Origin: Bradyrhizobium amphicarpaeae
GTDB lineage: Bacteria > Pseudomonadota > Alphaproteobacteria > Rhizobiales > Xanthobacteraceae
Assembly: GCF_002266435.3 (NCBI RefSeq)
Contig: NZ_CP029426.2
Span: 1,270,001-1,334,000, forward strand
Direction of reading: 5' to 3'
DNA: 64,000 nucleotides
Shown here piece after piece: positions 24,289-25,800 of this stretch. A model generated the notes under the pieces. That model had not been told where the DNA came from, did not search any database, and was given only the letters and a program-made list of their open reading frames with translations. Position numbers and translations under genes: made by a program. Within the stretch, counting starts at the first letter, position 1, and the number at the start of each line of letters is the position of its first letter.

Positions 24289-24365
24289 GCAGTTGTAGCT
24301 CAGTTGGTTAGAGCGCCTGTCTGTGGAACAGGAGGTCGGTGGTTCGAGCCCACCCAACTGTACCA
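24289..24365 (+). tRNA. tRNA-His (GTG anticodon)
   Basis: 77 nt with CCA encoded. Cloverleaf: acceptor GCAGTTG/CAACTGT (first pair G-U), D arm GCTC/GAGC, anticodon arm CCTGT-CTGTGGA-ACAGG with anticodon GTG, variable loop AGGTC, T arm GGTGG-TTCGAGC-CCACC, discriminator A. As in other alphaproteobacteria there is no obvious encoded extra G-1. The Fic/HTH pair follows 45 bp downstream on the opposite strand. Confidence 0.96.
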
Positions 24366-24409
24366 GTGCCCGGAGAATGCGACCTCAGGTATTTGGTGGC
24401 GTCACCGCC

Positions 24410-25012
24410 TCAGAGATCATCTCTCCGCCCAACGAACTCCATCAACGGCCCAATGTCATCCCGGTCCGCGGCCCTAAGCGCCGCGATGTACGCAGCACGC
24501 CGCTCGTTCATCTGCTGAAGATCGTGTCCGCCCGCCCAATCGATCGGCTTGGCCTTGTAGACGCGGACCAGCACTGCATCCGCCATGATACGGGCGTGCC
24601 TGCCGTTGCCATTGGGAAACAGGTGAATCTTGACGAGGCGATGGTGCAACCGGATGGCGGCTTCGGAAGGCGGATAGGTTTTGTTGTCGGCCCAATACTG
24701 GGCGTCACCCATGAGGGTTCGAAGCTCCATGGGAATGTGGATCGGATCGATGCCGATGTTCTTTCCGGTCGTTCGAAACGTTCCCGCCCAGTCCCAGACG
24801 TCACCGAACAGGCGCTTGTGCAGGGTGACGGCGAAGTTGTCGGTCAGAACGTGCGCCTTCTGCCGACCAAGCCAAAGCAGGCCGGACACGATGTTGGCCT
24901 GCTCCAGTTGATCCAGCTCGCCTTGCGTCGTGATGTGCTTATGCTTGAGCCCGCCAAGCTCGTTGGGATCGAGCGGCGTCGCACCCTCGGGGTACTGTAG
25001 ATTCCCGATCAC
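24410..25012 (-). CDS. Fic-domain protein, mobile mystery protein B type
   Basis: 200-residue Fic protein, predicted to transfer AMP or a similar group from a nucleotide to a hydroxyl of a target protein. The catalytic loop is HLFPNGNGRHAR (130-141): the His, GNGR and final Arg are kept, but the usual Asp/Glu before GNGR is Asn134. The flap hairpin is near TFRTTGKNIGIDP. The N-terminal EGATPLDPNELGGLKHKHITT and the pairing with an upstream XRE-like gene match the mobile mystery protein B/A pair as I know it. Its ATG overlaps the partner's stop (ATGA), so translation is coupled. Either a toxin with antitoxin or a mobile-element accessory pair. Confidence 0.85.
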   Translation of the reverse strand: MIGNLQYPEGATPLDPNELGGLKHKHITTQGELDQLEQANIVSGLLWLGRQKAHVLTDNFAVTLHKRLFGDVWDWAGTFRTTGKNIGIDPIHIPMELRTLMGDAQYWADNKTYPPSEAAIRLHHRLVKIHLFPNGNGRHARIMADAVLVRVYKAKPIDWAGGHDLQQMNERRAAYIAALRAADRDDIGPLMEFVGRRDDL

Positions 25013-25476
25013 TGATCGCGCCAGAAATTCGGCGGCATTTCCAGCGCAAGCTCACGGGCGAGTCGTTCGACTTGCTGGGCGATCTTGTCGTCCGGCAGTT
25101 TCTGGTTTTCGAGGGCCATGTGCTTGCTGGCCGTATCGACGATGGCCGCAGCCTTTTTTCGAGCCTGGGCAGCAATGAGATCCTCGACATCTCCTGATGC
25201 CGGAATGATCGCATAGACGAAGCGGCATCCCATCGCCTCGGCTGTCGCCTGCATCGATTTCAGGGTGATGCTGCCGGAGAGTTCGGCGCGTTCTGCGGTG
25301 GTGACGCGCGCGCGGGTGACCCCCATCGCCTTTGCGACGTCCGCGCCCGACATGCCGAGCGCGCTGCGCACCGTGCGCAGCCAGCCTTCGGGCGGCGTTT
25401 TCATGCCGGCAATGCGTGCGGCAGCGGCACCGACGAGGTTGCGGTACTGCTGCTGAACGATCTTTTTGACACTCAT
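25009..25476 (-). CDS. HTH protein, mobile mystery protein A type (probable antitoxin/repressor)
   Basis: 155 residues. The middle is a Cro/C1-like helix-turn-helix: GWLRTVRSALGMSGADVAKA followed by MGVTRARVTTAERAELSGSITLKSMQATAEAMGCRFVYAIIP, the characteristic order for mobile mystery protein A. The C-terminal half is helical and charged. It is the first gene of a two-gene operon with the Fic protein. The upstream region is AT-rich and has three ATATCCA-type sites, suitable for autorepression. It could also neutralise the Fic protein; I did not find a convincing canonical Fic-inhibition motif. Confidence 0.83.
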   Translation of the reverse strand: MSVKKIVQQQYRNLVGAAAARIAGMKTPPEGWLRTVRSALGMSGADVAKAMGVTRARVTTAERAELSGSITLKSMQATAEAMGCRFVYAIIPASGDVEDLIAAQARKKAAAIVDTASKHMALENQKLPDDKIAQQVERLARELALEMPPNFWRDQ

Positions 25477-25509
25477 TTGTCGACCCGCATGGCTGAACAG
25501 AGATCCACA

Positions 25510-25563
25510 TTGGATATTTATATATATCCAAACATGAAGTAGATGAATACGGAAATATATCCA
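25510..25563 (-). promoter_or_regulatory. AT-rich promoter with repeated ATATCCA operator-like sites
   Basis: TTGGATAT, six bases, ATATCCAA forms an inverted repeat at 25510..25531, and a further ATATATCCA lies at 25555..25563. This is by far the most AT-rich stretch in the window and lies 35-85 bp upstream of the HTH gene start at 25476. Likely the autoregulated promoter of the HTH/Fic operon; inference from position and symmetry only. Confidence 0.5.
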
Positions 25564-25800
25564 TATCTTTATTAAGTGGGTATATTTAAGTATTCGATAT
25601 GGGCCGAGTGGTTCCAGAAGTTCCTACGGCAGGACTCACTTTTAAGGGGGCCGGCCTCGATCGGCGGCAGGTCGAGCAGTTTTGCCAGCCTGAGTGCGGC
25701 GCCGGCATCGCCAGCGCTGTCACGTAGCTCCTCGGTTCGCTATGCAATACCGGTAGTGAGCCAACGACGTTCATCGACAAGCAAGCAGGCAAAAACCATC

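What the first reader, a model, noticed from the sequence alone, without database searches (positions are those of the whole stretch)
24289..25600. Fic/HTH mini-island beside tRNA-His with an altered Fic loop
A two-gene, translationally coupled operon (HTH then Fic) of the mobile mystery A/B type lies 45 bp from tRNA-His and has an unusually AT-rich promoter, suggesting acquisition at a tRNA site. In the Fic loop (130-141) the acidic residue before GNGR is Asn134. In known Fic AMP-transferases that position binds the metal, so the chemistry or substrate may differ. I know of no firmly established function for this pair.
Basis: partly seen in the sequence, partly recalled or inferred. Interest (0 to 1): 0.72.

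Follow-up and report, generated by a model that had tools for sequence, protein, structure and literature searches.

The report
Fic toxin pair with phased operators
A small mobile gene pair beside a bacterial tRNA gene looks like a toxin and its own brake, probably controlled by a row of evenly spaced DNA switches; the odd amino acid noticed at first turns out to be the normal state of its protein family.

Summary
Observation right, main inference corrected. The pair is mobile mystery A (TIGR02612, HTH) and B (TIGR02613, Fic), overlapping by 4 bp, 44 bp from tRNA-His. Asn134 is not an alteration of this copy: it stands in 17 of 17 HMM-picked relatives, while other Fic/Doc loops of the genus read D or E in 29 of 29 readable. 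Three points I did not find in print: (1) the AT-rich promoter is an array of palindromes 33 bp apart; that spacing stands out in 72 of 93 loci against 6-8 of about 92 in control stretches. (2) A ends in MxLExQ, resembling the Fic inhibition motif [S/T]xxxE[G/N]; 5 of 17 relatives match it strictly, this A does not. (3) The tRNA-His to TenA gap is a swap site, 163 bp to 18.6 kb in 56 relatives, with PADLOC hits in 10 of 24 occupants scanned. Best reading: an autoregulated, class I-like Fic toxin-antitoxin pair with a DNA-binding antitoxin. Toxicity, binding and chemistry are untested. New variant of a known kind.

The parts
24289..24365 (+). tRNA-His (GTG), left border of the variable interval
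   Evidence: ARAGORN; the 271-bp query 24150-24420 has a match in 256 of 257 genus genomes
24366..25713 (.). variable interval (hot spot) between tRNA-His and the conserved stretch before TenA
   Evidence: BLAST of window pieces against 20 relatives: the left piece matches to the tRNA end; in most of them the stretch before TenA matches only from about 25714 on (two, L103 and L111, also match parts of 25650-25712); the 44 bases after the tRNA match none
24410..25012 (-). Fic protein, mobile mystery protein B (200 aa), putative toxin
   Evidence: TIGR02613 272 bits, PF02661 50 bits, AlphaFold2 model pLDDT 77.6, FIC structures as best matches
24590..24625 (-). Fic loop H130-LFPNGNGRHA-R141 with Asn134
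   Evidence: sequence; Asn across the family
25009..25476 (-). HTH protein, mobile mystery protein A (155 aa), putative antitoxin and repressor
   Evidence: TIGR02612 169 bits; HTH_3 on residues 33-87 at 22.2 bits, just under the Pfam cut-off of 23
25009..25012 (-). GTGA overlap of HTH stop and Fic start
   Evidence: a 4-base overlap is possible in 75 of 105 family loci (start codon nearest to the A stop taken)
25102..25122 (-). H119-M-A-L-E123-N-Q125 of the HTH protein, candidate inhibitory motif
   Evidence: M120, L122, E123, Q125 invariant in 15 aligned A proteins; exact MxLExQ in 102 of 104 A proteins, the other two with F or M for L, and in 17 of 17 further ones
25511..25530 (.). operator-like palindrome 1, TGGATATTTATATATATCCA
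   Evidence: the repeat finder family D1
25544..25563 (.). operator-like palindrome 2, 33 bp from the first
   Evidence: 75% identity to the first
25577..25596 (.). operator-like site 3, 33 bp from the second
   Evidence: 65% identity to the first
25801..26466 (+). TenA-like protein (name recalled from its sequence, not from a family call), right border of the hot spot
   Evidence: homologue found in 159 of 257 genus genomes

Best explanation
A self-regulated toxin-antitoxin pair of the Fic kind. B is a FIC-fold enzyme, probably toxic when free. A is at once its repressor and its antitoxin: the HTH part of A (alone or with B) sits as dimers on two or three palindromes spaced 33 bp, about three turns and so on one face of the DNA, and shuts the promoter; the C-terminal helix with the invariant Glu123 is proposed to enter the active site of B and bind Arg141, as the antitoxin helix does in class I FicTA. 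Coupled translation keeps A and B in step. Stress or infection that removes A would free B and derepress the operon. The pair is one of many small modules that swap in and out between tRNA-His and TenA. Shown: gene order, overlap, family-wide Asn loop, conserved MxLExQ, 33-bp spacing, variable interval. Inferred: toxicity, A-B binding, Glu123-Arg141 contact, repression, role in defence.
For: An A gene with MxLExQ just before B in 17 of 17 HMM-picked loci (A stop within 26 nt of the B domain start in 15, 94 and 304 nt in the other two), five with strict [S/T]xxxE[G/N] (TMSLEG in L264 and L267, TMRLEN in L270, L272, L273; some of these come from one genus), and no A found by 12 Fic proteins below the family cut-off. 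EcFicA has SRRLEG with its Glu bound to R2 (PMC5033356, passages). B keeps the catalytic His and R2 in 115 of 120 close homologues. The human FICD rows align with B only from residue 22 (FICD 249), so no counterpart of an N-terminal inhibitory helix was aligned there (its place in FICD is recalled), while VbhT of the VbhT-VbhA pair aligns over 13-198. 33-bp spacing: 72 of 93 against 6 of 92, 8 of 91 and 7 of 93 in control stretches; window alone 29 against a maximum of 26 in 1000 shuffles; 11 of 16 in the second set, which had no control stretches. Best PDB relatives of the A profile are antitoxins HigA3 and HigA2, over the HTH only, E about 0.002. Two one-chain A-B proteins among the 120 listed. 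Mesorhizobium loti mll2066, listed as mobile mystery protein b, is raised at 48 C (M-value 4.02; PMC3989490, passages). Relatives of B on 232 of 72,556 plasmid records.
Against: The strict motif [S/T]xxxE[G/N] is not met in this A (His at the first place), nor in any of the 104 A proteins of the first set. Asn134 breaks the canonical loop, so AMP transfer may be weak, altered or lost. Operator type did not follow the presumed recognition helix beyond general relatedness (partial Mantel 0.043; 56 of 500 permutations as high). No sigma-70-type promoter match was found in the array. The A model is poor (pLDDT 63). 19 of 93 loci failed the 33-bp test in the rerun, four of them Bacteroidota; other distances from 20 to 60 reached 3 to 27 of 93; in the second set L260 passed at all five distances tried and two passes were by one point. 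The fusions may be sequencing frameshifts.
Confidence: 0.62

Rival explanations
1. The Fic protein is a pseudo-enzyme or works with weak catalysis: Asn cannot hold the metal well, and B mainly serves as a co-repressor of A, so that the pair is a regulatory module and not a toxin.
For: D/E of the loop coordinates Mg between alpha and beta phosphate in VbhT and SoFic (PMC3667792, passages); a Doc clade with Asn was suggested to be possibly inactive (PMC4454073, passages); no adenylylation could be shown for EcFicT (PMC5033356, passages).
Against: The rest of the loop stays: H, F, N134, G, N, G, R and the last R are invariant in 16 aligned B proteins; His and R2 together in 115 of 120 close homologues. 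A dead enzyme would be expected to lose them.
Confidence: 0.18
2. B is active but with another donor or metal setting than Mg-ATP AMP transfer, with Asn134 as the mark of that chemistry. This overlaps with the best explanation and excludes only its default of AMP transfer.
For: Asn in 17 of 17 HMM-picked B proteins against D/E in 29 of 29 readable loops of other Fic/Doc hits of the genus; PMC3667792 says that deviating loops go with other activities, as in AnkX (passages).
Against: Asn can still be a metal ligand; nothing here tests the donor. One Fic below the family cut-off and without A has Asn too (L281).
Confidence: 0.3
3. A is a local repressor that is linked with B but does not inhibit it; the C-terminal motif serves dimerisation or folding.
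For: No structure of the complex; the motif departs from the strict consensus in most members.
Against: An A gene in 108 of 110 first-set loci (the other two are a partial B and a B at a contig end) and 17 of 17 of the second set; Glu and Gln of the motif kept in 104 of 104 while the letters beside them vary.
Confidence: 0.15

Closest known systems
TIGR02612/TIGR02613 mobile mystery A/B gene pair
   Same: Both proteins score far over the curated cut-offs; same order as the other loci.
   Different: Nothing at gene level. The passages I saw give no mechanism: Geobacter A was called an antitoxin next to Fic in a cas locus (PMC3936711), and TIGR02613 is listed under Fic/Doc among Tn7-like transposon cargo (PMC8649781).
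Class I FicTA (VbhT-VbhA, EcFicT-EcFicA)
   Same: Antitoxin gene directly upstream, FIC fold of like size, R2 kept, Glu motif in the partner.
   Different: Asn in place of D/E in the loop; partner is an HTH protein; motif starts with His here; phased palindromes before the operon.
HigA-type HTH antitoxins
   Same: HTH of A is nearest to HigA3/HigA2 in the PDB.
   Different: Partner is Fic and not a RelE-like RNase (HigB fold recalled).
Phd-Doc
   Same: Autoregulated TA with a Fido-fold toxin (recalled).
   Different: Other antitoxin fold and other loop (recalled).

Membership tests
TIGR02613 (mobile mystery B) | HMM score over 124.4 bits | tested here: met
   272.3 bits
TIGR02612 (mobile mystery A) | HMM score over 122.6 bits | tested here: met
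   169 bits
Fic domain (PF02661) | score over the gathering cut-off and FIC fold | tested here: met
   50.2 bits against 24; FIC structures lead
Canonical Fic AMP-transferase | HxFx(D/E)GNGRxxR loop | tested here: not met
   HLFPNGNGRHAR, Asn at the D/E place
Canonical Fic AMP-transferase | AMP transfer activity | not testable with these tools
   needs an assay
Class I FicTA | antitoxin gene directly upstream, same strand | tested here: met
   A directly upstream with 4-bp overlap; that A is an antitoxin is inferred
Class I FicTA | strict [S/T]xxxE[G/N] motif in the antitoxin | tested here: not met
   HMALEN in this A; strict in 5 of 17 HMM-picked relatives, 0 of 104 in the first set
Class II/III Fic | own inhibitory helix in the N- or C-terminal part | tested here: inconclusive
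   no such motif seen on reading B and its alignment; human FICD rows start at B residue 22
Type II toxin-antitoxin system | toxicity neutralised by a bound partner | not testable with these tools
   needs expression tests
Autoregulated operon | the repressor binds sites before its own operon | not testable with these tools
   the sites are there and their spacing is conserved; binding needs an assay

The most novel reading that the evidence does not exclude
Mobile mystery A/B is a distinct, cross-phylum class of Fic toxin-antitoxin: the antitoxin joins a HigA-like DNA-binding domain to an inhibitory helix, assembles cooperatively on palindromes locked at 33 bp while their sequence drifts from clade to clade, and the Asn-loop Fic enzyme moves a group or uses a metal setting not yet seen in Fic proteins.
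Probability: 0.3. Interest if true: 0.75.

Novelty: new variant of a known kind. Interest (0 to 1): 0.52.

Why it matters
The family's own name, 'mobile mystery', says that its function is unknown. The result gives it a testable mechanism with named residues and sites: Glu123 of A against Arg141 of B, and palindromes whose 33-bp spacing is kept while their letters change. It also makes the role of the acidic loop residue of Fic enzymes testable in a natural family that does without it, and points to the tRNA-His/TenA gap of this genus as a place to look for small defence modules.

Tried and rejected
Asn134 as a private mutation: rejected. The 80 loci were found partly with the pattern FPNGNGR[HW], so their Asn tally is biased; the tallies and 82/90 and of the genus loci L003-L032 do not rest on that pattern.

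Att repeat at this copy: none seen in 24200-26200. G083 has a 17-bp copy of the tRNA-His 3' end at L093:3294-3310.

Integrase: no phage integrase domain among the 30 interval ORFs given to Pfam (20). These are part of the ORFs; the four intervals of 13-19 kb (L225-L228) were not scanned. The own genome has two integrase hits, at 401472 and 657885, far away.

Operator against recognition helix: not shown. On that run the 11-residue window of A that followed operator type best was the MxLE region (0.281), which I read as clade structure and not as DNA contact; the HTH helix ranked 59th of 115.

A-B fusion as proof of binding: two cases, each listed with one contig; a single indel at the 4-bp overlap could make them, and P0121 has Tyr at the catalytic His. 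Counted as weak.

Phage origin: no match at E 1e-10 in 50,697 phage records. PADLOC gave B a best match to candidate system PDC-S04 (60 bits); I do not count this as a defence function.

Structure: both structure-prediction jobs went to B and A singly; no complex could be modelled.

Papers: search listings, and passages by 'find'; no section and no whole paper was read. Listing only: PMC4886054 and the other titles that are not cited with passages.

Rows dropped before counts: array test, 110 loci to 104 (no usable A start or under 150 bases upstream) to 93 (near-identical upstreams merged). My first partner rule missed the A genes of L130 and L190; one search shows them.

Full report
What is there. 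The finding's coordinates hold tRNA-His (24289-24365, +) and, convergent with it, two genes on the minus strand: an HTH gene (25009-25476) followed by a Fic gene (24410-25012) that starts inside the HTH stop (GTGA). NCBIfam names them mobile mystery protein A and B with scores far over cut-off.

The loop. The Fic loop is HLFPNGNGRHAR. In studied Fic AMP-transferases the place of Asn134 holds Asp or Glu, which binds the Mg that bridges alpha and beta phosphate (PMC3667792, passages). Among the 120 closest proteins listed by the search (of 7914 hits) Asn stands there in 115, Asp in 2, Ile in 2, His in 1. Seventeen further loci were over the TIGR02613 cut-off in 398 genomes of the phylum: Asn in 14 by pattern and, read by eye, in the other three (L273 HPYPNGNGRFSR; L274 and L276, decayed copies with other changes in the loop). 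For contrast, of 64 Fic/Doc hits in 26 genus genomes 30 were given loci; they read Asp 25, Glu 4, one unread. Twelve Fic hits below the TIGR02613 cut-off read D/E 11, Asn 1 (L281). So Asn is the family's own state. Whether it changes the chemistry cannot be told from sequence; His and the second Arg are kept together in 115 of 120.

The partner. A carries an HTH whose nearest solved relatives by profile are the antitoxins HigA3 and HigA2. Past the HTH region and the stretch up to P92, the invariant residues in 15 aligned A proteins are A105, A109, M120, L122, E123 and Q125. Exact MxLExQ is in 102 of 104 A proteins of the first set, the other two having F or M for L (L153, L156), and in 17 of 17 of the second set. 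Class I antitoxins inhibit Fic with [S/T]xxxE[G/N]; EcFicA has SRRLEG, and its Glu binds the second Arg of the Fic loop (PMC5033356, passages). Five A proteins of the second set match that motif strictly, with TMSLEG or TMRLEN; none of the first set does, and the window's A has HMALEN. I propose that this is the inhibitory helix with a relaxed first position. B itself shows no such motif that I could see, and the human FICD structures align with its model only from FICD residue 249 on.

The promoter. The repeat finder shows three 20-bp sites at 25511, 25544 and 25577, 33 bp apart; the second and third have 75% and 65% identity to the first. I scored each A-upstream stretch of 180 bp for two 20-mers at distance d that match each other directly and as inverted copies, against block shuffles. 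At d = 33, 72 of 93 non-redundant loci beat all shuffles; d = 32 gives 26-27, d = 34 gives 2-7, and the other distances from 20 to 60 give 3 to 27. Stretches downstream of B, further upstream of A and inside A give 6 of 92, 8 of 91 and 7 of 93 at d = 33. A rerun with a new seed gave 74 of 93 and named the 19 failures, which include four Bacteroidota loci and several where my start choice looks too far downstream; loci from Nitrospirae, Chlorobiota, Omnitrophica and two Bacteroidota pass (many are MAGs). In the second set 11 of 16 pass; L260 passes at all five distances tried, L262 and L264 by one point, and two of the five failures do better at 32. By eye the half-sites differ by clade: GGATAY..RTATCC in Bradyrhizobium, GTATAC/GTTGAC types in many other proteobacteria, ATAAG..CTTAT in a second subfamily, ATGCTAT..ATAGCAT and TCAGG..CCTGA elsewhere. 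Thus spacing is kept while letters drift. I could not show that the letters follow the recognition helix. AT-richness of the promoter is a family trait (median GC 0.31).

The place. TIGR02613 is over cut-off in 35 of 265 genomes of the genus, own included; the tRNA-His query has a match in 256 of 257, TenA in 159 of 257. I read 56 intervals between the two, chosen because both markers lie close on one contig (20 of 20; 36 of 38 fetched regions): 163 bp (G032) to 18,588 bp (G043). The same pair sits there in G083 (Fic 93% identical, no stop), as a remnant in G129 and as a shorter fragment in G060; in G224 a copy with a stop codon lies on the far side of TenA. PADLOC hits with E at or below 1e-5 fell in 10 of 24 intervals, from one or two ORFs each, mostly the largest: LmuA/LmuB, IetS, QatC with an HTH-M78 protein, PRTase_III-A, RT-Protease_XI, REase_II, PDC-M36A, NsnA twice, and a Schlafen/AlbA protein with a weak pAgo match. 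The other 14 gave none. Pfam adds Mrr, NACHT, patatin, an Xre/MbcA antitoxin and a nucleotidyltransferase. This looks like a swap site for small conflict modules, with the caveat that intervals and ORFs were not a random sample.

Elsewhere. Relatives of B (E at or below 1e-20, nearly all under 60% identity) are found on 232 of 72,556 plasmid records, 99 of them conjugative, 21 mobilizable and 112 non-mobilizable by PLSDB typing, and on none of 50,697 phage records at E 1e-10. In Mesorhizobium loti the gene listed as mobile mystery protein b is among the 50 most raised at 48 C (PMC3989490, passages), as expected if heat removes an antitoxin-repressor, though other causes are possible; the neighbouring tag mll2067 is not mentioned in that text.

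What is known. Of the papers held, six mention the family by name or accession; I saw passages of five and the sixth, PMC4886054, in the listing only. One calls the Geobacter A gene an antitoxin next to Fic in a cas locus (PMC3936711). None of the passages describes the array, the C-terminal motif or the Asn loop. So the toxin-antitoxin label is not new; the mechanism proposed here is, as far as these searches show.

Verdict. Ordinary as gene content, wrong as 'altered loop', but the family has a clear and checkable architecture. New variant of a known kind.

Noticed in passing
window 24366-25713 and loci L093-L112, L193-L228: The gap between tRNA-His and TenA in this genus holds different small modules, several of them defence-type (Lamassu-like, IetS, QatC-like, RT-protease, GmrSD and others).
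   Followed up: partly
L093:3294-3310: 17-bp exact copy of the tRNA-His 3' end 2.9 kb downstream of the tRNA in G083, an att-like repeat around an element of mostly unknown genes.
   Followed up: no
window 43561-43636: ARAGORN reports a tRNA with an odd two-base anticodon on the minus strand, perhaps a tRNA remnant.
   Followed up: no
P0121, P0122: One-chain A-B fusion proteins; P0121 has Tyr in place of the catalytic His.
   Followed up: partly
L281: A Fic protein below the TIGR02613 cut-off, without an A partner found, also has Asn in the loop (HPFTNGNGRVVR).
   Followed up: no
L009, L023, L274, L276: Copies of the Fic gene with a stop codon inside, so the module decays often enough to be seen.
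   Followed up: no
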